A stretch of 64,000 nt of DNA from Cognatishimia maritima (lineage in GTDB: Bacteria; Pseudomonadota; Alphaproteobacteria; Rhodobacterales; Rhodobacteraceae). The translations under genes were made by a program, and so were the position numbers. The first letter of the stretch is position 1; each line of letters begins with the position of its first letter. The stretch covers positions 1 to 64,000 of the forward strand of contig NZ_FQWM01000002.1 in NCBI RefSeq assembly GCF_900129685.1. The letters are read 5' to 3'. The notes beneath the pieces were generated by a model, which worked only from the letters and a program-made list of their open reading frames with translations, was not told where the DNA came from and made no database searches. Below, piece after piece: positions 29,880-62,154 of the stretch.

Positions 29880-29908
29880 AAAACCCCGCCTACTTCTAGG
29901 CGGGGTTT
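29880..29908. terminator. Bidirectional terminator between the attachment gene and rplQ
   Basis: AAAACCCCGCCTA and TAGGCGGGGTTT pair around CTTC with T-runs either way. It ends the plus-strand unit and the alpha-operon block (rpsM-rpsK-rpoA-rplQ) coming from the right. Confidence 0.88.
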
Positions 29909-29936
29909 CTAACTCAATCGCAAGAGAGAGCGCGGA

Positions 29937-30353
29937 TTATTCCGCGTCTTCGACCTCTACGATACGTGCTTTGTCAGCTGCGCCTTTGGCGTCAACGTCA
30001 CGCTCAACGAATTCGATGATCGCCATTGGCGCCATGTCGCCGTAACGGAAGCCCGCTTTCAGAACGCGGATGTAACCACCGCTACGTTCTGCAAACCGAG
30101 GGCCGAGCACTTCGAACAGTTTCGCTACATGCTTGTCTTGCTTCAGCTGTGCAGCAGCCTGACGGCGCGCGTGCAGATCGCCGCGCTTGCCCAGCGTGAT
30201 CAGTTTTTCAACGATCGGGCGCAGTTCTTTTGCTTTTGGCAGAGTTGTTTTGATCTGTTCGTGTTCGATCAGAGAGCCTGCCATGTTGGCGAACATCGCT
30301 TTGCGGTGTTCGTGTGTACGGTTCAGGCGGCGGTAACCACGTGCGTGACGCAT
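29937..30353 (-). CDS. rplQ: 50S ribosomal protein L17
   Basis: 138 aa. Family start [20 protein letters not shown] and the central [21 protein letters not shown]17 sits near the exit tunnel of the large subunit. Last gene of the alpha block, 161 bp after rpoA, a larger gap than usual. The acidic tail (IVEVEDAE) is common in this lineage. Confidence 0.97.
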
Positions 30354-30514
30354 TTTCTATATCCTTCTTTGGTGCCCTTGGTCAGGCGATACTTTGTCTG
30401 GCTTCCGATGCGTGTCGGTTGCTCTCCTTGGGGCAGGATTGCCCTTGCTTTCCTCGCTAGTGCGAGCATGTGGCGGGCCATCTACATGCCCCGCCAGAAT
30501 TTTTCAAGACGCTC

Positions 30515-31531
30515 TTAGAAGGCGTCTTCGAATTTCTTTGCCAGATCTTCGATATTGTCTGGTGGCCAGTCGTCCACGTCCATGCCGAGGTGCAGACCCA
30601 TGCCGGACAGCACTTCTTTGATCTCGTTCAAAGATTTGCGGCCGAAGTTCGGGGTGCGCAGCATTTCTGCTTCGGTTTTCTGGATCAGATCGCCGATGTA
30701 AACGATGTTGTCGTTCTTCAGGCAATTCGCAGACCGTACGGACAGCTCCAGTTCGTCCACTTTCTTCAGCAGAAGTGGGTTGAACTCAAGACCATCGTCC
30801 TCGTCCTGACGACCAGCCGCTTCTGGCTCGTCGAAGTTCACGAAGATAGACAGCTGGTCCTGCAGAATGCGCGCTGCGTATGCAACCGCGTCTTCTGGTG
30901 TGATAGAGCCATCTGTTTCGATCTTCATGGTCAGCTTGTCATAGTCCAGAACCTGACCTTCACGGGTTGGCTGAACGTCGTAGGACACGCGCTTGACCGG
31001 AGAGTAGATTGCATCGATTGGCATCAGGCCAATAGGTGCATCTTCTGGCTTGTTTTTGTCCGCAGACACATAGCCTTTGCCGGTGTTGACGGTCAGTTCA
31101 ACGAAGAGGTCCGCGCCGTCATCCAAGTGACAGATCACGTGATCTTTGTTCAGAACTTCAATGCCTGCAGAGTCAGAGATATCAGCCGCAGTCACAGCAC
31201 CCGGACCCTTTGCATTGATCGAAAGACGCTTTGGTCCTTCGACTTCCATGCGCAGCGCAACCTGCTTGAGGTTCAGGATGATGTCGGTGACGTCTTCACG
31301 CACACCCGCCACAGAAGAGAACTCATGCAGAACGTTGTCGATTTGCACAGACGTGATGGCCGCACCTTGCAGCGAGCTCATCAGAACGCGACGCAGCGCG
31401 TTGCCCAATGTCAGACCAAAGCCGCGTTCCAGCGGTTCGGCGACGACAGTCGCTTGGCGTGCAGGGTCATTGCCCGGCTTAATTTCAAGCTGGGTTGGCT
31501 TGATCAATTCTGCCCAGTTTTTGTGGATCAT
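30515..31531 (-). CDS. rpoA: RNA polymerase alpha subunit
   Basis: 338 aa. N-terminal domain (~1-230; [20 protein letters not shown]-like assembly motif) dimerises and nucleates core enzyme; the C-terminal domain (~250-338) with [20 protein letters not shown] and [12 protein letters not shown] binds UP elements and activators. ATG at 31531 follows GGAGGGACGC; an upstream ATG at 31552 lacks such a site. Between rpsK (115 bp) and rplQ. Confidence 0.98.
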
Positions 31532-31646
31532 GCGTCCCTCCATTCTTGTCAAACCCCCATGATCAATCAGGGTTCGACTCCCGAGGTTTCAAAATGACGA
31601 ACTGGGGCCGTGACGAAATACGCGGCCCCAGGTACCAATACTTAGA

Positions 31647-32036
31647 TTAAACGCGGCGGCGCTTTGGTGGGCGGCAGCCGTTGTGTGCGATTGGGGTCAC
31701 GTCACGGATAGATGTGATATTGAACCCAATGGCAGCCAATGCGCGCAGTGCGGATTCACGACCGGACCCTGGACCTTGAACTTCAACTTCCAGAGTTTTT
31801 ACGCCGTGATCCTGTGCTTTTTTGCCAGCATCTTCCGCAGCCATCTGAGCCGCATATGGGGTAGACTTACGGGAGCCTTTGAAACCCATGGTGCCAGCAG
31901 AGGACCAAGAAATTGCGTTACCCTGAACGTCAGAGATCAGGATTTTTGTGTTGTTGAACGAAGAGTTCACGTGAGCAACACCAGCGGCGATGTTCTTACG
32001 TTCTTTGCGCTTAGGCGCTCTCTTATCGCGTGCCAT
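31647..32036 (-). CDS. rpsK: 30S ribosomal protein S11
   Basis: 129 aa. [20 protein letters not shown] and the C-terminal [18 protein letters not shown] are unmistakable. S11 forms part of the platform near the mRNA exit. 14 bp after rpsM. Confidence 0.98.
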
Positions 32037-32050
32037 CTAATCAGCCCCCC

Positions 32051-32419
32051 TTATTTCTTCTTACCAGCAATGGCCTTTGCAGGACCTTTGCGAGTACGAG
32101 CGTTGGTGTGGGTACGCTGACCGCGAACCGGTAGGTTACGACGGTGACGCAGACCGCGGTAGCAGCCCAGGTCCATCAGACGTTTGATGTTCATCTGAAC
32201 TTCACGGCGCAGGTCACCTTCAACGGTGAAGTTTGCGTCGATGTGTTCACGAACGGCCAGAACTTCTGCGTCGGACAGTTCGTTTACGCGGCGAGTGGCG
32301 TCGATACCAACTGCTTCGCAGATTGCTTTTGCAGAGGTGTGGCCAATGCCAGTGATATAAGTCAGGGCGATCGGGACCCGTTTGTGGGTCGGGATATTAA
32401 CGCCGGCGATACGTGCCAA
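32051..32419 (-). CDS. rpsM: 30S ribosomal protein S13
   Basis: 122 aa. [20 protein letters not shown] start and the [19 protein letters not shown]-terminal motif that contacts tRNA and the intersubunit bridge. First gene of the alpha block, which starts at its own promoter (32580-32608) and has a ~155-nt leader. rpmJ is not next to it, and rpsD is absent between rpsK and rpoA, as usual in alphaproteobacteria. Confidence 0.98.
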
Positions 32420-32477
32420 GTGTCTTAGTCCTTCATTGTTGCGGTTCCGTAGCTCCAGAACCTTTTTTCACAACATA

Positions 32478-32505
32478 AGCCCGAGGCGTTTAGGGCCATC
32501 GGGCT
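32478..32505 (-). promoter_or_regulatory. Hairpin in the rpsM leader
   Basis: AGCCCGA (32478-32484) and TCGGGCT (32499-32505) pair in the transcript about 60 nt before the rpsM start. It may regulate the alpha block, whose E. coli counterpart is controlled by S4 through a leader structure; here that is only inferred from position. Confidence 0.45.
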
Positions 32506-32579: not shown

Positions 32580-32608
32580 TGCATACGGGGGAATTGGGGG
32601 TGGGTCAA
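32580..32608 (-). promoter_or_regulatory. Predicted promoter of rpsM-rpsK-rpoA-rplQ
   Basis: On the minus strand: -35 TTGACC (32608-32603), 17-bp spacer, -10 TATGCA (32585-32580). It gives the alpha operon independent transcription after its separation from secY-adk. Confidence 0.7.
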
Positions 32609-32626: not shown

Positions 32627-32959
32627 TCATAATTCAGTAGTTTGCACCGAATTCAATAAACGTTTGATCACCGCTGGCCAGTAAATCAGGTAGGCGAGCC
32701 CAAGCGTAACGATTGAAAGTAAGAGCCAAACAAGCGCATGACCCAAAATATCGACAAACGCTACCTCAACATTCAGTTTGGCTATCTTACTACCAGCTCC
32801 ATCGACAACATAAGTCCGATTAATTGGTGCCTTTAAAAAATAGTATGGCAGAACAAAAAGAGCCAAGCCAAAGGTCACCACTGACAGAATGATCCAAATT
32901 ACGAGTTGTCCGATTGCCTCGCCAACACTGAATTCGCACTTAAGATTTTTGCCAAGCAT
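32627..32959 (-). CDS. Small hypothetical membrane protein
   Basis: 110 aa (ATG at 32959; a TTG at 32971 would add four residues). Two repeated hydrophobic units, LVIWIILSVVTFGLALFVLP and LVWLLLSIVTLGLAYLIYWP, suggest an internal duplication and two to four membrane passes. It resembles small DUF6693-type proteins by eye; function unknown. AT-richer than the flanking ribosomal genes, it occupies the gap between the alpha block and the antiporter gene. Confidence 0.55.
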   Translation of the reverse strand: MLGKNLKCEFSVGEAIGQLVIWIILSVVTFGLALFVLPYYFLKAPINRTYVVDGAGSKIAKLNVEVAFVDILGHALVWLLLSIVTLGLAYLIYWPAVIKRLLNSVQTTEL

Positions 32960-33079
32960 TTCCGCATCCAATTTCTACTTAAAATTGAACTCTCAATACT
33001 GAGTTATGCCTTGTTGGGCAAGAGAGCTAATTCTGCTGCGTGCAGTTAGTCCGCCAAGCAATAATCAAGGACTTTGCCC

Positions 33080-34945
33080 CTACCCCTTCTCCGCCATAAT
33101 CTCCCCGGCGCGCTGCGCCATTTCGGCCTCCCACTCTGCACGACGATCTTGGATCGAGGCCAAATAAGCCTCGTTCTCTGTCGCGGGAATGGACGGATCG
33201 TAATGTTCGGCCACGGCCAACATCCCCTTGCGGTCCACCTCGGCAAAGACATCGGCGATCCGCTGCGCCTGATCGCGGGAATAGCCCAGCCCTTCGAAGG
33301 CCGACCGGCCCATGCGCAAAGAACTGTCGTAGGTCTCGCGGATAATGTCGCGGCATCCCAGTGCCCAAAGGTCATAGACATGGTTCCGGTCCATTGCGCG
33401 GGCAACAACGTGCACGTCTGGATAGTGGCTTTTCAGATAGTGAACGAGTTCTGAAATCTGATCTTTTTCATCAATCGCCACCACAACGAGTTTCGCGTGT
33501 TCAATCCCTGCGGCGTGCAAGAGGTCAGGTCGCGTCGCGTCACCGTAATAGGCCTGCACCCCAAACAGTTTCAGCATCTCTAGCTGGCGCGCACTATAGT
33601 CGATCACCGTCGGGTTCAGCCCGGCCCCACGGAGCATCCGCGCAACAATCCCGCCCACACGGCCATGGCCTGCAATGATGATATCGTTCTCCTCGGCGAT
33701 CTCATCCATCTCGCGTTCTTCGGCTTCCGAGAACCGGGGGGCCACGACACGGTCGTACAGAATAAACAGCGCGGGCGTTAGCAGCATCGAGAGCGCCACG
33801 ACCAGCAACAAGCGATCTGCAAGGTCAGCGGGGATCACCGCATTGCTGACTGTGAACGAGAGCAGCACAAACCCAAATTCCCCCGCCTGCGCCAAGCCCA
33901 GCGCGAAAAGCCAACGGTCCGCGCCCTCGATCTTGAAAATCACCGCCAGCACCAACAGCACCGCCGCCTTCAGCACCATCAAGCCAAGCGTCAGCACAAC
34001 GATCAGCGCCAGATTGTCAAACAGCAGACCAAAGTTGATGCCCGCGCCCACCGTCATAAAGAACAAGCCCAGCAGCAGCCCTTTGAACGGGTCAATATCG
34101 CTTTCCAACTCGTGGCGGTATTCACTGTTCGCCAGCACAACACCCGCAAGGAAGGTGCCAAGCGCCGGAGAGAGACCGACCAGCGACATCAATAAGGCAA
34201 TGCCGATGACCATCATCAAAGCGGTCGCCACAAAGAGTTCCCGAAGATTCGCCCCGGCGATAAACCTGAATATTGGGCTGGTCAGGAACATCCCGCCGCC
34301 AACCACAGCCGCGATTGAGCCAAGCGTCACAAGTGCAACGCCCCACCCCGGCAGCCCGTCAACCAGGCTGAGCGACGCGCCATGATGCGCATCATCCCCG
34401 TGGGATGCATGCGACATCGCCTCGACCAGGTCCGGCAACGCCAGCAAAGGCACCAGCGCCAGCATCGGGATCACCGCGATATCTTGAAACAGCAAGACCG
34501 AGAAGCTCGACTGCCCGCCGTCGCTTTTCATCAGGCCTTTCTCGCCCAGCGTCTGCAAAACAATCGCTGTCGAGGAGAGCGCAAAGACCAGCCCAATCGC
34601 CAAGGCAACGGTCCAAGGCTGACCAAACAGCATCGCAACCGCCATCACCAAAGCCGCGGTGATCCCCACCTGCCCACCGCCCAGGCCCAGCAATTTCGCC
34701 CGCATGGACCACAGCAGCTTAGGCTCCAATTCCAGCCCTACCAGAAACAGCATCATCACAACGCCGAATTCCGCAAAATGCTGGATCGACACCACATCCA
34801 CATGCAGCCATGCAAGGATCGGGCTAATGACAATACCCGCGATCAGATAGCCCAGCACCGACCCCAGCCCGAGCCGCGAGGCAATTGGCACAGACACAAC
34901 GCCAGCCACCAGAAATACAAAAGCTAGCAAAAGAAAATCGGTCAT
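33080..34945 (-). CDS. Monovalent cation:proton antiporter-2 (KefB-like) with RCK domain
   Basis: 621 aa. About twelve transmembrane helices (CPA2 family; GVVMMLFLVGLELEPKLLW and ALSSTAIVLQTLGEKGLM with the signature Gln-Thr-Leu region), then a TrkA-N/RCK NAD-binding domain, DIIIAGHGRVGGIVARML, and an acidic/amphipathic tail. Kef systems export K+ when activated, for example by glutathione adducts; the ligand here is unknown. ATG at 34945 chosen over 34984, which adds a cysteine-containing non-hydrophobic start. It is a foreign gene between secY-adk and the alpha block. Confidence 0.9.
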   Translation of the reverse strand: MTDFLLLAFVFLVAGVVSVPIASRLGLGSVLGYLIAGIVISPILAWLHVDVVSIQHFAEFGVVMMLFLVGLELEPKLLWSMRAKLLGLGGGQVGITAALVMAVAMLFGQPWTVALAIGLVFALSSTAIVLQTLGEKGLMKSDGGQSSFSVLLFQDIAVIPMLALVPLLALPDLVEAMSHASHGDDAHHGASLSLVDGLPGWGVALVTLGSIAAVVGGGMFLTSPIFRFIAGANLRELFVATALMMVIGIALLMSLVGLSPALGTFLAGVVLANSEYRHELESDIDPFKGLLLGLFFMTVGAGINFGLLFDNLALIVVLTLGLMVLKAAVLLVLAVIFKIEGADRWLFALGLAQAGEFGFVLLSFTVSNAVIPADLADRLLLVVALSMLLTPALFILYDRVVAPRFSEAEEREMDEIAEENDIIIAGHGRVGGIVARMLRGAGLNPTVIDYSARQLEMLKLFGVQAYYGDATRPDLLHAAGIEHAKLVVVAIDEKDQISELVHYLKSHYPDVHVVARAMDRNHVYDLWALGCRDIIRETYDSSLRMGRSAFEGLGYSRDQAQRIADVFAEVDRKGMLAVAEHYDPSIPATENEAYLASIQDRRAEWEAEMAQRAGEIMAEKG

Positions 34946-35048
34946 CGTCCGCGCGTCCTCACAAAATGTCTCTGCCCCAAGCATTCACAGCGACATGCCC
35001 AAAGTAAAGAAAATGCTGCGCCCACGTCCCGACAAAGACCCAGACAAA

Positions 35049-35080
35049 GAAAAACGCCCCACCGGTGACCGATGGAGCGT
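35049..35080 (-). terminator. Terminator after adk
   Basis: Minus-strand transcript: CGCTCCATCGG pairs with CCGGTGGGGCG around TCA, followed by TTTTTCTTT. Ends the rplO-secY-adk block. Confidence 0.8.
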
Positions 35081-35104
35081 CCTGAAACTTCGATGTGGCG
35101 TGAC

Positions 35105-35680
35105 TTAGTCGAGCGCAGCCGCGATCTCGGCCTGAACGTCTTTGATCGGCGCAAGGCCATCAACCCAGATCAGGTTGCCCTTGGCGTGGTAATAGCCGAT
35201 CAGCGCGTTGGTCTTTTTGTAGTATTCCATCAAGCGCACTTTCAGGCTCTCGGCATTGTCGTCCGCACGGGCGACGCCACCTGCAGCCACAGCCTCTGCC
35301 GCACGACCGACGATGCGATCGACCAGAACCTCATCGTTCACGGCCAGTGCGATCACAGCGTCCAGCTTTTCGCCGGTCTCTTTCAGAAGCTCTTCCAGAG
35401 CGTCTGCTTGAGTCAAAGTGCGTGGGAAGCCGTCAAAGATGAAACCACCTTTTTTGTCGCCTTCCAGCTTTTCGCGGATCAGGCCGATGACGATCTCATC
35501 TGTGACCAACTCGCCTGCGTCCATAATGGCCGCAACCTTTTTGCCCATCTCAGAGCCACTGGTCTTTGCTTCACGCAGCATATCGCCAGTGGACAGTTGG
35601 ATCATGTCACGGGTTTCAACCAGATGGGCCGCTTGTGTGCCCTTACCTGCGCCCGGAGGGCCTAGGATAATAATATTCAT
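35105..35680 (-). CDS. adk: Adenylate kinase
   Basis: 191 aa, the short form. Converts ATP + AMP to 2 ADP. P-loop [17 protein letters not shown] site [23 protein letters not shown], and a LID much shorter than the 214-aa enterobacterial enzyme ([20 protein letters not shown]) and without zinc cysteines. It overlaps secY by 4 bp, the usual secY-adk order. Confidence 0.97.
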
Positions 35681-37041
35681 CGACGAGCAGCTCCCTTTCT
35701 CCCGCGCTTCTTGGAACCCTTTCCACGCAGCTGCGATTTTTCAATCAGGCCTTCATACTGGTGTGCCAGCAGATGGCTCTGAACCTGCTGAATGGTATCC
35801 ATTGTCACAGACACAACAATCAGCACCGAAGTCCCGCCAAAATAGAAAGGAATTGCCAGTTGGCCACGGAGAATCTCTGGTAGGAGACAAACTGCCGCAA
35901 GGTAACCTGACCCCAGGACCAGAATACGCGTCACAACGTACTCAAGATACTCCGCCGTTTTCTTACCGGGGCGAATACCTGGCACAAAACCGTTTTGGTT
36001 TTTCAGGTTGTCCGCTACTTCGTCGACCTTGAACGACACGTTGAAGGTGTAGAAGAAGGCGAAGAAGACGATCATCGCTGTAAAGAACAACAGATACAGC
36101 GGCTGACCCGGACCGAAATAGGCCAGAATGGTCGACATGATCGGGCTGGTCTGGTTGCCAGAGAAGGTCGAAATCGTTGTCGGCAGCAGCAGCAGAGAAC
36201 TTGCAAAGATCGCCGGGATCACGCCTGCTGGGTTTACTTTGACCGGCAAGTGGCTGGAGCCACCGTCATAGACTTTCATGCCCACCTGACGGCGCGGGTA
36301 TTGAATGTGGATCTTGCGCAGCGCGCGCTCCATGAAGACCACGAAGGCGATGGTCGCAACAACCATGACAATCACGCCCACAATCACCGCCGGGCTGATC
36401 GCGCCAGAGCGGCCAGAGGCAAAGAATTGTGCCAGTGCCGCAGGCACTTCGGCGATGATGCCGACGAAGATGATCAATGAGATACCGTTACCGATGCCAC
36501 GTGCGGTGATCTGCTCACCCAGCCACATCAGGAACATGGTGCCACCCACCAGCGTGACCATGCAGGATACGATAAAGAACAGCCCCGGTTGGGTCACAAG
36601 GTCGCCAGACTGCAAAGACACGGCCAAGCCATAGGACTGCAGCGTCGCCAACAATACCGTGCCATAGCGGGTGTATTGGTTGATCTTCTTGCGGCCCTGC
36701 TCGCCTTCTTTCTTCAACTGCTCCAAAGCTGGAACCATTGATGTCAGAAGCTGCACGATGATCGAGGCGGAGATGTAAGGCATAATGCCAAGGGCAAAGA
36801 TGCCCATCCGGCCCAATGCACCCCCTGTAAACATGGTCAGGATGCCGCCAATACCCTGCGCCGCGCCTTCCATAAATTCACGCAGCGCATTCGCATCAAT
36901 GCCCGGCACCGGAATATAGGTGCCCAAGCGATAAACGATCAAAAGCGCGATGGTGAACAGAATGCGGTTGCGAAGATCGGTCGCTTTACCAAGCGCGGCC
37001 CAGCTTGTGTTGGCCGCCATTTGTTCTGCTGCAGATACCAT
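35677..37041 (-). CDS. secY: Protein translocase subunit SecY
   Basis: 454 aa, ten transmembrane helices, the channel of the Sec translocon. Marks: [60 protein letters not shown]-like loop ([16 protein letters not shown]), and the cytosolic [16 protein letters not shown] loop that meets the ribosome. It follows rplO by 110 bp and overlaps adk. Confidence 0.98.
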
Positions 37042-37151
37042 TCGGATCTCTCTTCAAATGACAACGCCGCCAAGAGCGTTTTCCAGCTCCGGCGGCGTTA
37101 AATAGGAAAACTAGAGTGTATGTAAGCGGGTTGCCCCCCGCTCACAACCTC

Positions 37152-37625
37152 TTATTCAGCCGCTGGCGCGGAAGTGACCTTTAGGGAGCCACCTGCTTTT
37201 TCAACAGCTTCAACGGCAGATTTGGACGCGCCGGTAACTTCGATGTTGGCTTTCGCGGTGATTTCACCTTTTGCCAATACACGAACACCGTCTTTCACGC
37301 GACGGATCAGGCCAGAAGCAACCAGTGCTTCTTCGGTGATCGGCGCGGAAGCGTCCAGTTTCTTTTCGTCGATGAATTTCTGAATCAGGCCCAGATTTAC
37401 AACCGCGAAAGCCTTGCGGTTTGGCTTGTTGAAGCCACGCTTAGGCAGACGTTGGTACAAAGGCATTTGGCCGCCTTCGTAACCCTTGATCGCAACACCA
37501 GAACGGGATTTCTGACCTTTGATACCACGGCCACCCATTTTACCTTTGCCGGAACCCGGACCACGTGCAACACGTGTACGTTTCTTGGCGGCACCTGGGT
37601 TGTCGCGCAACTCATGCAGTTTCAT
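37152..37625 (-). CDS. rplO: 50S ribosomal protein L15
   Basis: 157 aa. [20 protein letters not shown] and the Gly-rich [20 protein letters not shown] are diagnostic. The ATG at 37625 follows GGAGAAGCGAT; the longer frame to 37751 would run through the predicted promoter region. First gene of the rplO-secY-adk block, cut off from rpmD by the HNH and DUF1127 genes. Confidence 0.98.
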
Positions 37626-37722
37626 ATCGCTTCTCCTTGCCGGAACTGACCCCTGAAGCGTAAGCGGGCCAAACACGGCTTTTCTTGATTTGTGATTCTG
37701 TGGCGTTTGAGGCCACTGGGGG

Positions 37723-37751
37723 CGTATAGGCGTAGTCTTTAAGGGAATCAA
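37723..37751 (-). promoter_or_regulatory. Predicted promoter of rplO-secY-adk
   Basis: Minus strand: -35 TTGATT (37751-37746), 17-bp spacer, -10 TATACG (37728-37723). It sits 15 bases past the stop of the HNH gene, so the block can be transcribed without the genes upstream. Confidence 0.75.
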
Positions 37752-37766: not shown

Positions 37767-38528
37767 TCAGCCATTCACCCATCCAACCCGGGGGTTTTTC
37801 ATCAGGTAATTGGGGAACTGAACCAGCATATTTGAAGCGCCGTAATCTATTCCACCGCCGCAATTCTTGATGGTACAACCGCTCATCGCTAGCCCCCCAA
37901 CATTAGTTGAGCTTTCGCTGAAAACAAACCGCTCTCCGCCGATGACAATATTGCCGGTGACTTTTGCATGCTCTCCTGAAAGATCTATTGTAAAAAAATT
38001 CTCGCCATGCCGCTTTCTAATTTTAAGATAATCGGCCCTGAACTCCACGTCCCAAAGACCTTGAGTATGAACCAGCACATCATTGTTGACTATTTTCAGC
38101 TCCGGCCAAAAGTCGTCTCTTGGTAGATAAACGCTGATCAAGCTTTGATTATCACGGACTGAATAACTGATTATGGATTGACCATAATAGCTGACTATGT
38201 TGGGCGTATTGATGAAGGTATTGGAGCCCAGAACAAACGAAGACTTTTCGCGATCAGTACCGAGCTCACCTCTTAGTTTTCCTTTGCCTTTATTCTCCGG
38301 TGCGGATTTTAACTCGTATTGTCGGTCTCTGTGCCATTTCGCCACTATTCGATGACATGTTGGACATAGTGCGATCATATCTTCAGGCCGGTTATGATGC
38401 TCTTCTTGCCAAGGTACGATGTGGTGATAGTCCAAAATTGGATTTCCACATTTCGCGCAGCCAAAAAATGCTTCTTGCCTTAATTGGGTCCGCACCGGCA
38501 GAGGAATGTATCTATGTTTTTCGGTCAA
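37767..38528 (-). CDS. HNH endonuclease domain protein inside the spc operon
   Basis: 253 aa. N-terminal HNH nuclease: zinc pair CAKC, catalytic DYHHIVPWQ, second pair CPTC and HR. From ~90 a beta-rich domain with repeating hydrophobic/Asn-Gly pattern (NTFINTPNIVSYYGQSIISY; KVTGNIVIGGERFVF; GGLAMSGCTIKNCGGGIDYG) looks like a small beta-solenoid; its target is unknown. ATG at 38528 follows AGGAGA. The gene is AT-rich compared with its neighbours and splits rpmD from rplO. A defence or selfish role is possible but unproved. Confidence 0.75.
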   Translation of the reverse strand: MTEKHRYIPLPVRTQLRQEAFFGCAKCGNPILDYHHIVPWQEEHHNRPEDMIALCPTCHRIVAKWHRDRQYELKSAPENKGKGKLRGELGTDREKSSFVLGSNTFINTPNIVSYYGQSIISYSVRDNQSLISVYLPRDDFWPELKIVNNDVLVHTQGLWDVEFRADYLKIRKRHGENFFTIDLSGEHAKVTGNIVIGGERFVFSESSTNVGGLAMSGCTIKNCGGGIDYGASNMLVQFPNYLMKNPRVGWVNG

Positions 38529-38581
38529 TGCTCATCTCCTAAAATCAGCTGATAGAATAACCGATTTAATCAACTAAAGAA

Positions 38582-38657
38582 GCCCGGCACCGCCGGGCAG
38601 CGCCCGACCGCCCCCATGGGCGGGCGCTTTGCTTCCGCCCGCGGTCAAGCGATGCCC
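38582..38657. repeat. Branched palindromic repeat (copy A)
   Basis: A GCCCGGC/GCCGGGC hairpin (38582-38598) is followed by an outer stem GACCGC/GCGGTC enclosing CCC-AT-GGG and a GGGCGG...CCGCCC arm with GCTTTGCTT loop. Same plan as copies at 45901, 50571, 56963 and 63400. Confidence 0.6.
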
Positions 38658-38680
38658 TCAATTCAGAAACCACATCCCCC

Positions 38681-38712
38681 AAAAAACAAAACGCCCCCCA
38701 AATGGGAGGCGT
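38681..38712 (-). terminator. Terminator after the DUF1127 gene
   Basis: Minus strand: CGCCTCCC pairs with GGGGGGCG around ATTT, followed by TTTTGTTTTTT. Confidence 0.85.
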
Positions 38713-38738
38713 GAAAATCTCAAATGGTATGTCTCGGC

Positions 38739-38954
38739 TTATGCGCCGTAGACGTGCTCGCGTGCCAGATAGTGGATATCGTAACGAGAGATACCCAGAT
38801 CGGACAGATCACGGTCAGACAGATCGCTCAACTCGCGTACGGTTGCGGCGTATTTTGCACGCAGCGCGCGGGCGGCTTTGAAGTCTGCGAAAGCCACACG
38901 AATGCGGTCTGCAAAGCTGATGGCGTTGTAAGATGTTGTTGCTACGGTTGCCAT
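38739..38954 (-). CDS. DUF1127 small protein
   Basis: 71 aa from the ATG at 38954 (AAGGA site nine bases before; a GTG at 38960 is too close). The C-terminal SDLSDRDLSDLGISRYDIHY is the DUF1127 core. Similar arginine-rich small proteins in Rhodobacter and Agrobacterium act with stress-induced regulatory RNAs or phosphate/carbon pathways. Monocistronic, with terminators on both sides, in the gap between rpmD and rplO. Confidence 0.85.
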   Translation of the reverse strand: MATVATTSYNAISFADRIRVAFADFKAARALRAKYAATVRELSDLSDRDLSDLGISRYDIHYLAREHVYGA

Positions 38955-39145
38955 GTTCACGTTTCCTTAAAAGAGGACCAGGACCTATTTCCCGGTGATT
39001 TCACTTTGTTTCTCCTCGTGAGCCACAGATAGGCCGAGGGGTTAGCGCAAACAACTGACAATAAGGTCTGGCCGTTATGCAGTTGCAGCATGGCTGTTTT
39101 CAGGGCGTTCGTAGTTGCAGCATCGCCCCGAAAAAACTGCACAAA

Positions 39146-39176
39146 AAAACGCCCCCGGAAAAACCGAGGGCGTTTT
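39146..39176 (-). terminator. Terminator after rpmD
   Basis: Minus strand: AAAACGCCCTCGG pairs with CCGGGGGCGTTTT around a TTTTT-type loop and runs into more T. It ends the rpmC-to-rpmD block, so rplO is not read from it. Confidence 0.88.
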
Positions 39177-54148: not shown

Positions 54149-54457
54149 TTATACTGAGATCTGTACGTCAACGCCCGCAGCCAGGTCGAGCTTCATCAGC
54201 GCGTCCACGGTCTGTGGGGTTGGGTTTACGATGTCGAGCAGACGCTTGTGCGTGCGGATCTCGAACTGATCGCGAGATTTCTTGTCAACGTGTGGACCAC
54301 GCAGAACTGTGAATTTCTCAATTTTGTTTGGCAGTGGGATCGGGCCACGCACGTCAGCGCCTGTGCGCTTTGCGGTGTTTACGATTTCCTGAGTGCTTGC
54401 ATCCAGCACGCGGAAGTCGAATGCCTTCAGCCGAATGCGAATGTTTTGACTTTGCAT
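54149..54457 (-). CDS. rpsJ: 30S ribosomal protein S10
   Basis: 102 aa. [20 protein letters not shown] and the [20 protein letters not shown] loop. S10 is also NusE, a transcription antitermination factor. Start at 54457; the longer frame to 54511 lies in the leader. First gene of its block, 3 kb from tuf, which normally precedes it. Confidence 0.98.
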
Positions 54458-54526
54458 TTCGTCAGCCTTTTTTGGCGTCGGAGTTGAGAGGAGGACCAGC
54501 GACCACCGCAAACCCTCATCGAACCC

Positions 54527-54550
54527 AAAAGGCGGGAATCACCCCGCCTT
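54527..54550 (-). promoter_or_regulatory. Terminator-like hairpin in the rpsJ leader
   Basis: Transcript AAGGCGGG (54550-54543) pairs with CCCGCCTT (54536-54529) followed by TT, a short distance after the predicted start of transcription. A second small helix GTTCC/GGGAAC precedes it. Candidate attenuator. Confidence 0.55.
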
Positions 54551-54574: not shown

Positions 54575-54603
54575 CGTATACGGGCTGTAACCCTAGGTGA
54601 CAA
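54575..54603 (-). promoter_or_regulatory. Predicted promoter of the S10 block
   Basis: Minus strand: -35 TTGTCA (54603-54598), 17-bp spacer, -10 TATACG (54580-54575), about 120 bp before rpsJ. Confidence 0.75.
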
Positions 54604-54727: not shown

Positions 54728-56038
54728 CTACTCAATCGCCTTGCCAAACTCCGCCGCGCGTTTGAATTCGCCTTTGGCCACCATCTCTTTGGCAAGGACA
54801 GACACTTCGCCAAGAGGCAATCCACGTAAAAGCGCCTCTTTGAAACGGGCTTGGGCTTCCTCAAATCTGTCCTCGCGGATCAATATCCTTGCGTCCACCA
54901 GCATGGCCCAAGGCAGCCACGCCCCTTCGGTCATCAGCGCGGGACCGACCGCCAGCCGTGCTTTGGGTGTGTCATCCTGCGATAGTGCAATTTCCGCCCG
55001 CAATTTGTGGAGGTACCCATCCGCGTCATTGTTGTGTTTGATCCCCTCGGTCGCATCCCAAGCAGGGTCAAATTGCTGATCCGTGTATAGAATTTCGGCC
55101 AGCCAATAGGTCACGTAATACTGATCGGCCTCATCGACCTTTGCTTCCGAGAGGACCGATACCGCCTCTTTCACACGCCCCATATCGCTGAGGATGCGGG
55201 CGCGCATGACATAGCCAGTGCTGCGATCAGCATAGTGTTCCATCAGGAAATCTGCGTCTTTCAAGGCCTGCCGGTAACGTCCAAGCGACCACAGACCAAA
55301 GCTGCGCCGTTCGTGAAACCAATGCAGCGCCGGGTCATCGTGATCAGTCAAGGCGATGGCTTCGCTTGCGTGATGAACAGAGCCAGTAAAATCTTCGAGT
55401 TCGTAAAGCGCGTTGGAAAGCCCGTAGTGGGCATTGATATCCTCATCCCAATTCTCCAACGCCTTTTTGAAACTGCTGCGCGCGGTGGCGAAATTCCCGG
55501 CATCATGGTTGATCCAGGCATGTTCGCGCAAAATCCAATTGGCTTCTGGGGCCATGATGATCGCCGTGTCGAAATAGGCGTTCAAATCCTCAAGCGACAG
55601 CGCGTCGATCCGGTACTGCGCTGAGGCCATGCCAGCGAGGCGAAAACCCGAAGGGTCCGCGCTGACGGAGTGTTCAAACGCCGTTGCAGCGGCAGCATAA
55701 TCGTCCTGCGCAAAGGCGACCCAGCCCAGCCCTTCCTGTGCTGCGGCATCCCCCAAGACGAGGCCCATCATGCTTTCATATGCCGCGCGCGCCTCTTCCC
55801 ACTGGTTCAAATCGCGATAGCTGTCGCCAATCACTTCAAGCAGATCGTGGCGCACCTTTTTAGAAAGATTGGCGTCTTCTAGGGCTTTTCGGCAGCCCTC
55901 AATCAGGCGTTCAGAGGTATCCTCCCGATCTTGGCAGAAGGTGACGTAAGTATTTTCGGAATCTGTGATCAGGGGTTTTGCCAAGACAGGGCTGCAGAAA
56001 CACAGCACTGCTAGGACGAAATAAAGAGAACGTGGCAT
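54728..56038 (-). CDS. Exported TPR-repeat protein
   Basis: 436 aa. Signal peptide MPRSLYFVLAVLCFCSPVLA, then tandem tetratricopeptide helices over nearly the whole length (for example WEEARAAYESMMGLVLGDAA, ALGKALE-type and LGRYRQALKDADFLMEHYAD). Likely a periplasmic or outer-membrane scaffold; partner unknown. ATG at 56038 chosen because the signal peptide starts there; 56128 is in frame but adds a basic extension. It lies in the tuf-rpsJ gap. Confidence 0.75.
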   Translation of the reverse strand: MPRSLYFVLAVLCFCSPVLAKPLITDSENTYVTFCQDREDTSERLIEGCRKALEDANLSKKVRHDLLEVIGDSYRDLNQWEEARAAYESMMGLVLGDAAAQEGLGWVAFAQDDYAAAATAFEHSVSADPSGFRLAGMASAQYRIDALSLEDLNAYFDTAIIMAPEANWILREHAWINHDAGNFATARSSFKKALENWDEDINAHYGLSNALYELEDFTGSVHHASEAIALTDHDDPALHWFHERRSFGLWSLGRYRQALKDADFLMEHYADRSTGYVMRARILSDMGRVKEAVSVLSEAKVDEADQYYVTYWLAEILYTDQQFDPAWDATEGIKHNNDADGYLHKLRAEIALSQDDTPKARLAVGPALMTEGAWLPWAMLVDARILIREDRFEEAQARFKEALLRGLPLGEVSVLAKEMVAKGEFKRAAEFGKAIE

Positions 56039-56346
56039 AAGTTTTATTTCCAAATTGATACCGCCAGATACCACGGACAAGAGTTTCAGAGCAATCCGCG
56101 CTGGTCGAGTTGTGCGCACTGTTTCCACAAGTCAAACCCCCTGGATCAGGCTTTGATCATAACAAATCTGTGATTGGAAAATCGCAAAGGCCCGGGCTTA
56201 GCGCGCGGGTCAGGGTTTTCAAGCCGCTTCCGAGCGCATTTTAGGCATCAACCCTCTGATCCAAATGCGCGACTCCCCCGTATCGCTCCTGATGTTTGAC
56301 ACATCGTGTTGAGACCAATGATGAAACCAAAGAGGAGACCTCATCT
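56039..56346. other. Divergent intergenic region between the TPR and fasciclin genes
   Basis: About 300 bases. A consensus -35 TTGACA lies at 56296-56301, before the fasciclin start, but the -10 at 17 bp is poor. No RNA gene or repeat was seen. Confidence 0.4.
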
Positions 56347-57381: not shown

Positions 57382-57408
57382 GAAGGCCCCCCTTTCGGGA
57401 GGCCTTTC
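57382..57408 (-). terminator. Terminator after tuf
   Basis: Minus strand: AAGGCCTCCC pairs with GGGGGGCCTT around GAAA. Ends the rpsL-rpsG-fusA-tuf block. Confidence 0.75.
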
Positions 57409-57452: not shown

Positions 57453-58628
<1,176 letters not shown>

Positions 58629-58649
58629 GATGGCCTCCTATTTGGGGAT

Positions 58650-58700
58650 GCCGGGCTGAAGCCCGGCCTACAGTGGGTGGGTAGGGCGGGTTTCCCCGCC
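58650..58700. repeat. Two REP-like hairpins between fusA and tuf
   Basis: Minus copy GTAGGCCGGGCTTCAGCCCG then GC at 58650-58671; plus copy GTAGGGCGGGTTTCCCCGCC at 58681-58700. They lie inside the str block transcript. Confidence 0.7.
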
Positions 58701-58707
58701 GCCCCCG

Positions 58708-60825
58708 TTAAGCAAATTTCGCCTGAATTTCTTCAGAGATGTTGTTTGGCACTGGGTCGTAGTGGTCAAACTGCATGGTGAACTGCGCGCGGCCAGAAGA
58801 CATCGAACGCAGTGTGTTGATGTAGCCGAACATGTTCGCCAGAGGCACAAATGCGTCGATCGCAACCGCGTTACCACGTGGTTCCTGACCGGACACTTGA
58901 CCGCGACGGGATGTCAGGTCGCCGATGATGCCGCCGGTGTACTCTTCAGGAGTGATCACCTCGACCTTCATCATTGGTTCCAGCAGTTTCGCACCCGCCA
59001 GTTTCATACCTTCACGCATACACATACGCGCTGCGATTTCGAAGGCCAGAACGGAGGAGTCAACGTCGTGGAACTTACCGTCGATCAGAGCAACCTTGAA
59101 GTCGATCACTGGGAAGCCTGCCAGAGGGCCGGAGTCCATGACAGACTGGATGCCTTTTTCAACACCCGGGATGTATTCCTTCGGAACAGCACCACCAACG
59201 ATGCGGCTTTCGAAAGAGTAACCCTCGCCCGGCTCGGTTGGCGTGATGATGAGTTTGACCTCAGCATACTGACCAGAACCACCAGACTGTTTCTTGTGGG
59301 TGTAGGTGTGCTCGACTTCGTGGCCGATGGTTTCACGGTATGCAACCTGTGGTGCACCGATGTTCGCCTCAACCTTGAATTCACGCTTCAGACGGTCAAC
59401 CAGGATGTCCAAGTGCAGTTCGCCCATGCCCTTCATGATGGTCTGACCGGATTCCAGGTCAGTTTCCACACGGAAGGATGGATCTTCGGCTGCCAGACGC
59501 TGCAGACCCTGAGACATTTTCTCTTGGTCGGCTTTGGTCTTTGGCTCAACTGCGATCTCGATCACCGGATCTGGGAAGGTCATGGTTTCCAGAACCACAG
59601 GATCGTTGACAGCGCAGAGCGTGTCACCGGTTGTGGTGTCTTTCAGACCTGCCAGCGCGATGATGTCACCGGCGAATGCTTCGGTGATTTCTTCACGGTT
59701 GTTGGAGTGCATCATCATCATACGACCGATGCGCTCTTTACGGCCTTTGGTGGAGTTCAGCAGCGTGTCGCCTTTGTTCAGCGTACCAGAGTAGATACGT
59801 GTGAAGGTCAGGGAGCCAACGAACGGGTCGTTCATGATTTTGAACGCCAGACCAGAGAAGGCCATGTCGTCATCCGCGCGGCGCGCGATGTTACGAACTT
59901 CGTCTTCGTCGCCTGGTTTGAAGCCCATGTAATCAACAACGTCCAGTGGGGACGGCAGATAGTCGATCACAGCGTTGAGCAGTGGCTGAACACCTTTGTT
60001 TTTGAACGCAGAACCACCCAGAACCGGCACAAATGCCATTTCCAGAGTACCTTTACGCAGCAGTTTGCGCAGGGTTGGAACGTCAGGCTCTTCGCCTTCC
60101 AGGTAAGCTTCCATCGCGTCGTCGTCCATTTCGACGGCCGCTTCGATCATCTTACCGCGCCATTCTTCGGCCATGTCTTTCAACTCGGCACGAATTTCAC
60201 GCTTGTCCCAGGATGCGCCCAGATCTTCGCCTTCGTAGACCCATTCTTGCATGGTCACGAGGTCAACCAGACCTTCCAGCTCGGTTTCAGAACCGATAGG
60301 AATGCCAACAGGCACGGCAGTTGCGCCTGTGCGGTCTTCGATCATGTTAACGCAGTTGAAGAAGTCCGCGCCGATCTTGTCCATTTTGTTAACGAACACG
60401 ATACGTGGAACTTTGTAGCGGTCAGCCTGACGCCAAACGGTTTCAGTCTGAGGCTCAACACCTGCGTTTGCGTCCAGAACACAAACCGCACCGTCGAGAA
60501 CCGCCAAGGAACGTTCAACTTCGATGGTGAAGTCAACGTGGCCCGGGGTGTCGATGATGTTCAAGCGGTGCTTAGGAGTGTCGGCAGTAACGCCGTCCTC
60601 TGTGCGTTCCCAGAAAGTGGTGGTTGCAGCAGAAGTGATGGTGATACCACGTTCCTGTTCCTGCTCCATCCAGTCCATGGTCGCCGCACCATCGTGCACT
60701 TCGCCGATGTTGTGGGATTTACCTGTGTAATACAGGATGCGCTCGGAACAGGTGGTTTTACCCGCATCGATGTGCGCCATGATACCGAAGTTACGGTAGT
60801 GGTTAAGGGTATAGTCGCGTGCCAT
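58708..60825 (-). CDS. fusA: Translation elongation factor G
   Basis: 705 aa translocase. G1 [15 protein letters not shown]-type switch ([14 protein letters not shown]), G3 DTPGHVDF, G4 NKMD; domain IV and C-terminal [20 protein letters not shown]. 22 bp after rpsG. The long antisense open frame here (58762-60867) is a codon-bias shadow. Confidence 0.98.
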
Positions 60826-60847
60826 TGGTCAAATAAGCCTTTTGGGA

Positions 60848-61318
60848 TTACCAGCGATAATGGCTGAAAGCTTTGTTCGCTTCGGCCATCTTGTGAGTAT
60901 CTTCGCGCTTCTTCACGGCAGTACCGCGAGAGTTTACGGCGTCCAGAAGCTCACCTGCGAGGCGCTCTTCCATGGTGTTTTCGTTGCGCTTACGGGACGC
61001 GGTGATCAGCCAGCGGATGGCCAATGCTTCGCGGCGCTCTGGGCGCACGTCAACAGGCACCTGGTAGGTCGCACCACCCACACGACGAGAGCGAACCTCG
61101 ACGGATGGTTTGATGTTGTCCAACGCTTCGTGGAACACTTCGACAGGCGCGCGTTTTACTTTTGCTTCAACGCGATCCAGCGCGTTGTAAACGATTTTTT
61201 CTGCGACGGATTTTTTGCCATCGATCATGAGGTTGTTCATGAACTTGGACAGAACGCGGTCACCAAACTTTGCGTCTGGCAGGATTTCGCGTTTTTCAGC
61301 AGCGTGACGACGAGACAT
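60848..61318 (-). CDS. rpsG: 30S ribosomal protein S7
   Basis: 156 aa. [40 protein letters not shown] and [20 protein letters not shown]. Organises the 16S 3' domain; in E. coli S7 represses the str operon between rpsL and rpsG. Here that gap is 15 bp. Confidence 0.98.
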
Positions 61319-61333
61319 CTATAAATATCCTTC

Positions 61334-61705
61334 TTACTTAGGACGCTTCGCGCCGTACTTGGAGCGACGTTGCTTACGGTCTTTAACGCCCTGAGTATCC
61401 AGAACACCGCGCAGGATGTGGTAACGAACACCTGGAAGGTCTTTTACACGGCCGCCACGGATCAGAACCACAGAGTGTTCCTGAAGGTTGTGGGATTCAC
61501 CTGGGATGTAAGAGATGACTTCGTAACCGTTGGTCAGACGAACCTTCGCAACTTTACGCATCGCGGAGTTCGGTTTCTTCGGTGTGGTGGTGTAAACGCG
61601 TGTGCAAACGCCGCGTTTCTGTGGGCACTGCTCCAAGTGCTGCGACTTGGAGCGCTTGATTTTAGGCTGACGCGGTTTGCGGATCAGCTGTTGGATCGTT
61701 GGCAT
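61334..61705 (-). CDS. rpsL: 30S ribosomal protein S12
   Basis: 123 aa. [40 protein letters not shown] and [20 protein letters not shown]. The lysine in KKPNSA is the classic streptomycin-resistance position; it is wild-type here. First gene of the str block. Confidence 0.98.
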
Positions 61706-62154
61706 AGGGGCTTCCCGTTTCCTAACTCATTCTGCATGGGTTGCCCCACACGGTTCTCATATTCTGCCGCCACGCGTTGCCACATAGCGAAAAGCCGCAA
61801 ATGTTCCCATTCCGAGGCGAACATCGCGGTTAGTTTCCAGAGGGTGCACGCTTCAAAGTAGCGCGGACCTTAGCCACTGAAATTTTGATTTCGGCGCAAG
61901 GCGCACTACGCCCATGACCGGATAGGCGCGCGTATAGGGGGAGTCGGGAGGGTTGTCAACCGGAGGTAGCCGATCCCGCAGGTAGTGAACGGCCCAAGAT
62001 TAGACCACTTTCTAGTAGGCCCGCTACCAAATGCCCTTCGCAAGTGCTGGCAGAAATCGCCCTTACCTAACCTGTGGTCATTTCACATGACAACAGGGTT
62101 GCCCTGACAGGTCTAAGCTGACCCTTAATTCGCCCCCTTCAAAGGAGACCCAGC
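61706..62154. other. rpsL leader and promoter region
   Basis: About 450 bases without a gene. It contains the rpsL promoter (61931-61959), a leader of roughly 220 nt, and the region upstream of the small gene at 62155. No clear hairpin or RNA gene was seen in the leader. Confidence 0.5.
61931..61959 (-). promoter_or_regulatory. Predicted promoter of rpsL-rpsG-fusA-tuf
   Basis: Minus strand: -35 TTGACA (61959-61954), 17-bp spacer, -10 TATACG (61936-61931). The best match to consensus in the window. Confidence 0.8.

What the first reader, a model, noticed from the sequence alone, without database searches (positions are those of the whole stretch)
29880..61959. The str-S10-spc-alpha superoperon is split into six self-contained blocks
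Seen: ancestral gene order is kept, but foreign genes lie between tuf/rpsJ, rplW/rplB, rplP/rpmC, rpmD/rplO and adk/rpsM. Every block ends in an intrinsic terminator (57382, 52451, 46827, 39146, 35049, 29880). Five of six have a promoter with exactly 17-bp spacing (61931, 54575, 43617, 37723, 32580); only the rplB block lacks a clear one. In most bacteria these genes form one or a few long transcripts. Splitting them should allow separate control of each block.
Basis: partly seen in the sequence, partly recalled or inferred. Interest (0 to 1): 0.75.

Follow-up and report, generated by a model that had tools for sequence, protein, structure and literature searches.

The report
Ribosomal superoperon broken into regulated modules
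In this marine bacterium and its family, the long gene string that makes most ribosomal proteins is cut into six units that appear to have their own start, control and stop signals, and unrelated genes keep landing in the five gaps between them.

Summary
Confirmed, and a family trait. In 63 Rhodobacterales genomes 182 of 259 gaps at these five junctions are 250 bp or longer, against 3 of 1349 elsewhere in the cluster. In 55 other alphaproteobacteria the inner splits are absent but for one possible case.

A 17-bp spacer is conserved (115 of 308 block starts against 0-7 at other spacings), carried by rpsL, rpsJ, rpmC and rplO. The -10 mostly lacks the last T, a type linked to CarD. rplB has a weaker candidate.

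rplB has the known L2 leader (RF03142); rpsJ, rpmC, rplO and rpsM have covarying leaders without an Rfam family. The rpsM and rplO ones occur in 120 and 121 of 121 Rhodobacterales.

Inserts turn over fast (456 ORFs, 348 families), on both strands; the rplO block is apart from rplB in up to 29 of 121 genomes. One gap was already shown by RT-PCR in Ruegeria pomeroyi.

Best reading: self-sufficient modules arose first; the gaps then became landing sites. Ligands and transcript ends are untested.

The parts
61931..61959 (-). promoter of block 1 (str): TTGACA-17-TATACG
   Evidence: TTG-N3-17-TATACG upstream of rpsL in 22 of 37 Rhodobacterales
57453..61705 (-). block 1: rpsL, rpsG, fusA, tuf
57383..57406 (-). 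terminator of block 1
54728..56128 (-). insert tuf/rpsJ: TPR protein
   Evidence: Pfam; no relative among the 456 insert ORFs
54575..54603 (-). promoter of block 2 (S10): TTGTCA-17-TATACG
   Evidence: TTG-N3-17-TATA in 14 of 54
54455..54539 (-). rpsJ leader (no Rfam family; alignment A3, model R3)
   Evidence: 94.7% paired, 152 double-change cells, 0 of 500 shuffles; R3 hit 78.3 bits
52506..54457 (-). block 2: rpsJ, rplC, rplD, rplW
52450..52482 (-). terminator of block 2
51239..52297 (-). insert rplW/rplB: fatty-acid desaturase, followed by unassigned ORFs 50741-51217, 50436-50735, 49736-50404
49671..49697 (-). terminator-like hairpin at the predicted 5' end of the rplB transcript (GATTCGT loop)
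   Evidence: GATTCGT core upstream of rplB in 45 of 63 Rhodobacterales and 0 of 10 outgroups
49545..49657 (-). L2-Alphaproteobacteria ribosomal leader RF03142
   Evidence: 37.9 bits, gathering score 37.8
46899..49542 (-). block 3: rplB, rpsS, rplV, rpsC, rplP
46826..46857 (-). terminator of block 3
   Evidence: by eye; the script scan did not pick this one
44463..46718 (-). inserts rplP/rpmC: 46032-46718 unassigned, LysE-type 45164-45841, OsmC-like 44463-45056
43797..44420 (+). insert rplP/rpmC on the opposite strand: 2OG-Fe(II) oxygenase, PF13759/TIGR02466
   Evidence: its family is in the rplP/rpmC gap of 36 genomes
43617..43645 (-). promoter of block 4: TTGCCC-17-TATAGA
   Evidence: TTG-N3-17-TATA in 34 of 57
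43495..43572 (-). rpmC leader (no Rfam family; alignment A4)
   Evidence: 97.4% paired, 38 double-change cells, 0 of 500 shuffles; seed motif in 39 of 57 Rhodobacterales, 0 of 10 outgroups
39211..43500 (-). block 4: rpmC, rpsQ, rplN, rplX, rplE, rpsN, rpsH, rplF, rplR, rpsE, rpmD
39991..40085 (-). structured RNA in the rplR/rpsE spacer inside block 4 (no Rfam family; alignment A5)
   Evidence: 97.1% paired, 137 double-change cells, 0 of 500 shuffles; no TTG-17-TATA in front (0 of 57)
39143..39172 (-). terminator of block 4
37767..38960 (-). inserts rpmD/rplO: DUF1127 ORF 38739-38960 and HNH protein 37767-38528
37723..37751 (-). promoter of block 5: TTGATT-17-TATACG
   Evidence: TTG-N3-17-TATACG in 34 of 49
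37620..37687 (-). rplO leader (no Rfam family; alignment A2, model R2)
   Evidence: 97.9% paired, 51 double-change cells, 0 of 500 shuffles; R2 in 121 of 121 Rhodobacterales
35105..37625 (-). block 5: rplO, secY, adk
35051..35083 (-). terminator of block 5
32627..34984 (-). inserts adk/rpsM: KefB/C-type antiporter 33080-34984, DUF6693 32627-32971
32580..32608 (-). promoter of block 6 (alpha): TTGACC-17-TATGCA; a promoter is in place here in other alphaproteobacteria too
   Evidence: 8 of 9 outgroups show TTGAC-16-TATAAT; in Rhodobacterales TTGAC is conserved but TATA is not (0 of 48)
32414..32482 (-). rpsM leader (no Rfam family; alignment A1, model R1)
   Evidence: 99.8% paired, 24 double-change cells, 0 of 500 shuffles; R1 in 120 of 121 Rhodobacterales
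29937..32419 (-). block 6: rpsM, rpsK, rpoA, rplQ
29879..29910 (-). terminator of block 6

Best explanation
The str-S10-spc-alpha superoperon of Rhodobacterales has been rebuilt as six separate transcription units: rpsL-tuf, rpsJ-rplW, rplB-rplP, rpmC-rpmD, rplO-adk and rpsM-rplQ. Each starts at a sigma-70 promoter with a 17-bp spacer and a -10 that lacks the last T, which makes coordinated activation by CarD plausible. Each of the five downstream units then begins with its own structured 5' leader and ends at an intrinsic terminator. The leaders most likely work as ribosomal-protein leaders: a protein made in excess binds the leader of its own block and lowers its expression, so each block is balanced locally. 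Once a block carries promoter, leader and terminator it no longer needs its neighbour. The stretch between one terminator and the next promoter then became a nearly neutral place where genes are gained and lost, and blocks can move away altogether. Shown by sequence comparison: conserved boundaries, promoters, terminators, leaders and their covariation, insert turnover, and relocation. Inferred: independent transcription in this strain, CarD dependence, feedback by a ribosomal protein, and leader before insert.
For: Fixed boundaries: 182 of 259 against 3 of 1349 junctions of 250 bp or more. Other alphaproteobacteria: rplC-rplB distance 844-1155 bp in 55 of 55; rplB-secY 6.7-8.2 kb in 51 of 52 on one contig, one at 9.3 kb. 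Promoters: 17-bp spacing 115 of 308 block starts against 0-7 of 308 at other spacings, and 0 at most interior genes. Terminators at block ends. Leaders: known L2 leader and four covarying ones. R1 finds one site in each of 120 of 121 Rhodobacterales, R2 in 121 of 121. In a class draw of 143 genomes RF03142, R1 and R3 match 3 genomes, all of this family, and R2 those and one weak site in G146. Leader without insert: RF03142 in 6 of 8 tested genomes with an rplW/rplB gap of 300 bp or less (18 such genomes exist). Inserts: 348 families among 456 ORFs, both strands. Relocation: rplO leader on another contig than rplB in 20, inverted in 5 and more than 28 kb away in 4 of 121 genomes. R. pomeroyi RT-PCR (PMC3305630, passages). 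-10 without T and CarD (PMC8407463, abstract and passages).
Against: No transcript data for this organism were available. The pooled promoter count rests on rpsL 26/37, rpmC 34/57, rplO 36/49 and rpsJ 14/54; rplB has 5/63 and rpsM 0/48 with that pattern. Terminators are found after adk in only 15 of 49 and after tuf in 28 of 47. Some genomes with rpmD/rplO spacers of about 100-175 bp have the leader but no promoter that my pattern detects (G018, G057, G067, G110), so there blocks may still be joined by read-through. G110, sister to all others, lacks the rpsM leader and RF03142. One outgroup (G155) has a 476-bp tuf/rpsJ gap, and tuf/rpsJ and adk/rpsM were measured in only the 10 fetched outgroups. 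Leader alignments were seeded by a short motif, so they lean towards conserved cases; the rpmC seed is in only 39 of 57 genomes. Insert ORFs were called mechanically, so spurious ORFs inflate the number of singleton families and even out the strands. Short gaps could also be secondary losses of inserts.
Confidence: 0.72

Rival explanations
1. Insertion first: foreign genes landed between ribosomal genes and cut the transcript; promoters and leaders evolved afterwards to restore expression of the stranded part.
For: The promoter and leader lie downstream of the insert, next to the stranded block. The fetched relatives outside the order have spacers of only 2-63 bp at rplW/rplB, rplP/rpmC and rpmD/rplO.
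Against: The same five sites are used throughout the family although inserts differ. Leaders are present where there is no insert. Cutting an essential operon before a promoter exists should be lethal or costly (inference).
Confidence: 0.13
2. Read-through: the promoters are ordinary secondary promoters and the blocks are still largely co-transcribed across the gaps, so the split has little regulatory effect.
For: Several terminators are not found in some genomes, and some spacers are too short for a promoter after the upstream stop.
Against: 205 of 456 insert ORFs point against the ribosomal genes (mechanical calls). The rplO block has moved or inverted in up to 29 of 121 genomes. R. pomeroyi RT-PCR found no product across the rpmD/rplO gap boundaries (PMC3305630, passages).
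Confidence: 0.08
3. Recruitment: the gaps are kept because genes placed there profit from high expression or from their position near the ribosomal genes, so insertion is adaptive.
For: One insert family, a 2OG-Fe(II) oxygenase, is kept in the rplP/rpmC gap of 36 genomes. In R. pomeroyi an orphan in the rpmD/rplO gap is abundantly detected as protein (PMC3305630, section 7).
Against: 304 of 348 insert families are singletons, strands are close to evenly used, and gaps may be empty.
Confidence: 0.15

Closest known systems
L2-Alphaproteobacteria ribosomal leader (RF03142; Eckert and Weinberg 2020, PMC7247131)
   Same: The rplB leader of the window is a match above the gathering score, directly in front of rplB-rpsS-rplV-rpsC, as in their Table 1.
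   Different: The published entry is one leader with the rating '?' and a guessed ligand. The sections and passages I read do not tie it to a split superoperon or mention leaders of the other blocks; its supplement was not read.
Ribosomal-protein leaders of the E. coli S10 (L4), spc (S8) and alpha (S4) operons
   Same: Same genes; a structured mRNA element in the same superoperon.
   Different: Different places: five block leaders here instead of the E. coli sites (as summarised in PMC2704228, passages). Alpha_RBS is not met at rpsM (20.6 bits against 38, match driven by coding sequence).
Variable gap between two ribosomal protein operons in Ruegeria pomeroyi (PMC3305630)
   Same: The rpmD/rplO gap with orphan genes, variable 0.1-1.5 kb among roseobacters, terminator found, no RT-PCR product joining it to rpmD or rplO.
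   Different: One gap in one strain; no leaders, no promoter footprint and no family-wide five-site pattern in the section and passages I read.
Insertions in the rpoBC-str-S10-spc-alpha cluster of Gammaproteobacteria and Bacilli (Brandis 2021, PMC8046335)
   Same: Genes inserted into the same cluster, followed by loss of linkage.
   Different: Of the four insertions described in the passages I saw, three lie between whole operons and one inside rpoBC. Here S10 and spc themselves are cut at inner points and the same five sites recur.
Sigma-70 promoters lacking -7T with CarD activation (PMC8407463)
   Same: The block promoters have TTG, 17 bp and TATACG-like -10 boxes mostly without the last T.
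   Different: CarD dependence of these promoters was not tested; that this type precedes the six blocks comes from my footprint.

Membership tests
RF03142 L2-Alphaproteobacteria leader (rplB) | covariance-model score above the gathering score | tested here: met
   37.9 against 37.8 bits; barely, with a 67-base insert where the model has 22
RF03142 L2-Alphaproteobacteria leader (rplB) | directly upstream of rplB-rpsS-rplV-rpsC | tested here: met
   49657-49545, rplB start 49542
RF03142 L2-Alphaproteobacteria leader (rplB) | bound by L2 | not testable with these tools
   needs a binding assay; L2 is a best guess also in the source paper
Ribosomal-protein leaders in general (rpsJ, rpmC, rplO, rpsM) | located in the 5' region of a ribosomal-protein transcript, always with the same genes | tested here: met
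   R1 one site in 120 of 121 and R2 in 121 of 121 genomes, with a second weak R2 site in G081; R3 in 62 of 78 named loci; no model was built for rpmC
Ribosomal-protein leaders in general (rpsJ, rpmC, rplO, rpsM) | conserved secondary structure with compensatory changes | tested here: met
   double-change cells 24 (rpsM), 51 (rplO), 152 (rpsJ), 38 (rpmC), 0 of 500 shuffles each; the count of pairs with such a change was reached by shuffles for rplO (99/500) and rpsJ (267/500), and that of further pair types for rpsM, rplO and rpmC
Ribosomal-protein leaders in general (rpsJ, rpmC, rplO, rpsM) | binding of, and repression by, a protein of the block | not testable with these tools
   none
Ribosomal-protein leaders in general (rpsJ, rpmC, rplO, rpsM) | mimicry of the rRNA site of the ligand (optional) | not tested
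   none
Alpha_RBS RF00140 (rpsM) | gathering score 38 bits | tested here: not met
   20.6 bits, the well-matched part inside the rpsM coding region
CarD-type (-7 not T) sigma-70 promoters | TTG -35, 17-bp spacer, -10 without T at the last place | tested here: met
   in the window for five blocks, rplB with TAG for TTG; across relatives mainly rpsL, rpsJ, rpmC, rplO
CarD-type (-7 not T) sigma-70 promoters | activation by CarD | not testable with these tools
   none
Canonical contiguous str-S10-spc-alpha cluster | no unrelated genes between tuf and rplQ | tested here: not met

The most novel reading that the evidence does not exclude
Rhodobacterales replaced the shared control of the ribosomal superoperon by a set of self-sufficient modules. 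Each has its own promoter of one common CarD-type, its own autoregulatory RNA (at least four RNA families without an Rfam entry, plus a further one before rpsE) and its own terminator. This modularity turned an otherwise nearly inviolable gene string into movable parts with permanent insertion sites.
Probability: 0.6. Interest if true: 0.78.

Novelty: new variant of a known kind. Interest (0 to 1): 0.62.

Why it matters
The order of these genes is among the most conserved in bacteria, and why it holds is debated. Here is a whole family in which the string is cut at five fixed points, in all states from empty spacers of about 100 bp to a 17-kb gap and full dispersal. That makes the link between cis-regulation and gene order testable. 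The leaders give four or five RNA elements, apparently undescribed, whose protein ligands can be sought directly, in blocks that mix ribosomal genes with secY, adk and rpoA.

Tried and rejected
Rejected as a test because it demands a T at the last -10 place.

Alpha_RBS as identity of the rpsM leader: rejected. Other weak Rfam matches below the gathering score (isrJ, BSnc120, sX6; KDPG-aldolase, blv_FSE, CrcZ) were taken as chance.

A first, stricter terminator script undercounted and was replaced, which still misses the rplP terminator of the window.

The rplC/rplD spacer of about 110-150 bp in many genomes (33 aligned) gave no consensus structure.

Literature: ten searches listed no paper that by title or abstract describes the rpsJ, rpmC, rplO or rpsM leaders or the five-site pattern; most listed papers were not opened. 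Opened, in sections or passages only: PMC7247131, PMC8625941, PMC8046335, PMC2864571, PMC2704228, PMC3305630, PMC8407463. Subscription papers are not held, the CarD paper in PNAS was not held, and supplements were not read.

Rows dropped: leader alignments took only genomes with a short, loose seed motif. Seed present in 47 of 48 (rpsM), 49 of 49 (rplO), 54 of 58 (rpsJ) and 39 of 57 (rpmC) Rhodobacterales; the rpsJ and rplO seeds also occur in 4 and 3 of 10 outgroups. Identical sequences were dropped, giving 44, 48, 53 and 39. From rpsJ I left out 3 (L062, L090, L108), so A3 has 50. From rpmC I left out 4 (one by choice, three because the printed list was cut), so A4 has 35. A5 used 39 of 48: seven left out for extra length, two as near copies. 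One search used 78 of 80 named loci. The tree used 71 of 73 genomes. One search tested 8 of 18 genomes with short rplW/rplB gaps. The class draws list only the first non-matching genomes, so further family members without a match cannot be excluded there.

Full report
What was checked. Genes between 29.9 and 61.7 kb on the minus strand run rpsL-rpsG-fusA-tuf, rpsJ-rplC-rplD-rplW, rplB-rpsS-rplV-rpsC-rplP, rpmC-rpsQ-rplN-rplX-rplE-rpsN-rpsH-rplF-rplR-rpsE-rpmD, rplO-secY-adk and rpsM-rpsK-rpoA-rplQ. Between them lie a TPR protein; a desaturase with unassigned ORFs; LysE- and OsmC-like proteins with an opposite-strand 2OG-Fe(II) oxygenase; an HNH and a DUF1127 protein; and a KefB/C-type antiporter with a DUF6693 protein. 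Every stated terminator is a hairpin with a T-run. Every stated promoter is present at the stated base with a 17-bp spacer.

Is it more than chance, and is it this genome only? The cluster was read in 63 Rhodobacterales genomes and 10 other alphaproteobacteria. At the five junctions 182 of 259 gaps are 250 bp or longer. At all other junctions it is 3 of 1349, two of them fusA/tuf and one rpoA/rplQ. Of 34 genomes with all five gaps measured, 30 have at least one gap of 400 bp or more and 6 have all five; 4 have none. In the 10 outgroups the five gaps are short, except tuf/rpsJ of 476 bp in G155. In 55 alphaproteobacteria outside the family the rplC-rplB distance is 844-1155 bp; in the 52 of them with both genes on one contig, rplB-secY is 6.7-8.2 kb in 51 and 9.3 kb in one, G152. 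In 80 named loci around rplB (Shimia, Leisingera, Phaeobacter, Ruegeria, Sulfitobacter and others) the gap is 400 bp or more in 55 of 67 for rplW/rplB, 58 of 62 for rplP/rpmC, 15 of 24 for rpmD/rplO and 12 of 32 for tuf/rpsJ; three inner junctions counted alongside give 0.

Promoters. Aligned upstream regions show conserved TTG and TA blocks at the block starts. Over the six block starts TTG-N3-Nx-TATA occurs in 115 of 308 cases at x = 17 and in 0-7 of 308 at each other x from 11 to 24. The 115 are rpsL 26/37, rpsJ 14/54, rplB 5/63, rpmC 34/57, rplO 36/49 and rpsM 0/48, so the control supports four blocks and says little about rplB and rpsM. At most interior genes the count is 0 (exceptions tuf 4/48 and rplV 3/63). 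The last base of the -10 is rarely T in the hexamers listed; TATACG is commonest at rpsL (22), rplO (33) and rpmC (14). At rpsM the -35 TTGAC is conserved at a fixed distance, followed after 17 bp by a varied TA box. A paper reports that most alphaproteobacterial promoters analysed lack this T and that CarD raised transcription from several such Rhodobacter sphaeroides promoters in vitro (PMC8407463, abstract and passages; the primary PNAS paper was not held). The rpsM promoter is older than the family, since 8 of 9 outgroups show TTGAC-16-TATAAT there. The rplB block has TAGACA-17-TAAACG at 49738-49710.

Terminators. A hairpin with at least six pairs and a T-rich tail lies within 150 nt of the stop after tuf in 28 of 47 genomes, rplW 49/58, rplP 56/63, rpmD 49/57, adk 15/49 and rplQ 40/46. 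Shuffled sequence gives 0.4-1.0 in each. Interior genes give 0-2 except rplO 4/49 and rpsK 13/47.

Rfam finds RF03142, the L2-Alphaproteobacteria leader, at 49657-49545 (37.9 bits, gathering score 37.8). In a draw of 143 alphaproteobacteria it matches 3, all of this family. The other four downstream blocks carry leaders without an Rfam match above a gathering score. Counts for their consensus helices are: rpsM 99.8% of cells paired with 24 double-change cells; rplO 97.9% and 51; rpsJ 94.7% and 152; rpmC 97.4% and 38. No shuffle of 500 reached the observed percentage paired, double-change count or covariation score, and slid pairings score far lower. Two cruder measures were reached by shuffles in some cases: pairs with a change on both sides for rplO and rpsJ, further pair types for rpsM, rplO and rpmC. 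These alignments were seeded by motif and some rows were left out, as told under Tried and rejected. Models R1 (rpsM), R2 (rplO) and R3 (rpsJ) match 3, 4 and 3 of 143 class genomes: three of this family each, and for R2 a weak site in G146. In 121 Rhodobacterales R1 finds one site in 120 (all but G110) and R2 a site in 121, with a second weak one in G081. For R1, 78 of these genomes gave no row to the model and 77 of them are found; for R2, 74 gave none and all 74 are found. Some of those may carry copies identical to model rows. R3 finds 62 of 78 named loci, several of which do not reach rpsJ.

Order of events. A tree of 71 genomes puts G110 beside all other Rhodobacterales; its four measured gaps are short (42, 116, 175 and 224 bp). 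Long gaps (400 bp or more) need at least 11, 8, 6, 10 and 9 changes on the tree, against 18, 22, 16, 18 and 14 for shuffled labels, so they are partly inherited and have arisen or vanished many times. RF03142 is present in 6 of 8 tested genomes with a short rplW/rplB gap (G067, G016, G062, G018, G094, G081) and absent in G110, G113 and the outgroup G159. R2 is found in every genome with a short rpmD/rplO gap, R1 in every one with a short adk/rpsM gap except G110. At rplO some short-gap genomes have no promoter that my pattern detects (G018, G057, G067, G110), while others do (G016, G081, G070, G089). This favours leader first, then promoter and terminator, then insert, but secondary loss of inserts cannot be excluded.

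Inserts and movement. The gaps of 400 bp or more in the 63 genomes hold 456 mechanically called ORFs of 70 aa or more in 348 families, 304 of them singletons, 251 co-directional and 205 opposite; spurious ORFs will be among them. Even within the genus the contents differ: G000, G177 and G182 have tuf/rpsJ gaps of 2995, 994 and 4405 bp. The exception is the oxygenase family in the rplP/rpmC gap of 36 genomes, of 49 with a long gap there. The rplO leader lies on another contig than rplB in 20 of 121 genomes (some may be assembly breaks), is inverted in 5 and is more than 28 kb away on the same strand in 4; one of the inverted, G111, is about 645 kb apart.

What is known. [quoted passage not shown] by RT-PCR the inserted genes were not joined to rpmD or rplO. 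So one of the five gaps is in print, and it is the only experimental support I found. Passages of Brandis 2021 (PMC8046335) describe insertions in this cluster in Gammaproteobacteria and Bacilli, with later loss of linkage. My ten searches listed no report of the four leaders or of the family-wide pattern; most listed papers were not opened. Novelty is therefore rated as a new variant of known kinds: ribosomal leaders and operon splitting.

Limits. There is no transcript, binding or fitness evidence for this organism. Ligands are not assigned. E-values of the home-made models are rough.

Noticed in passing
window 39991-40085 (-), rplR/rpsE spacer: A further structured RNA without an Rfam family, with a nearly invariant CGATGATC, strongly covarying (137 double-change cells); absent (gap -11 to 1 bp) in G018, G046, G055, G057, G062, G067, G081, G094 and G110. 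No promoter pattern in front.
   Followed up: partly
window 37042-37151, 31553-31646, 30354-30514, 42964-43052 and 61706-61930 (-): Other spacers in the cluster (rplO/secY, rpsK/rpoA, rpoA/rplQ, rpsQ/rplN) and the rpsL 5' region also show conserved, partly covarying hairpins; rpsK is followed by a terminator-like hairpin in 13 of 47 genomes.
   Followed up: partly
window 43797-44420 (+): 2OG-Fe(II) oxygenase (PF13759/TIGR02466) is the only widely kept insert family, in the rplP/rpmC gap of 36 genomes next to the gene of L16; whether it acts on a ribosomal protein is open.
   Followed up: no
window 49671-49697 (-): A terminator-like hairpin with a GATTCGT loop sits at the predicted 5' end of the rplB transcript, upstream of the RF03142 model. 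It follows rplW closely in many short-gap genomes and stays with rplB in long-gap ones, so the Rfam model may be too short or this may be an attenuator.
   Followed up: partly
window 38739-38960 (-): DUF1127 small protein with a strong terminator behind it (38712-38691) inside the rpmD/rplO gap.
   Followed up: no
L070/L071 (genome G096): The rplO leader follows rplB after only 6.4 kb and the rpmC block was not found in the fetched stretch, suggesting that the rpmC block itself has moved.
   Followed up: no
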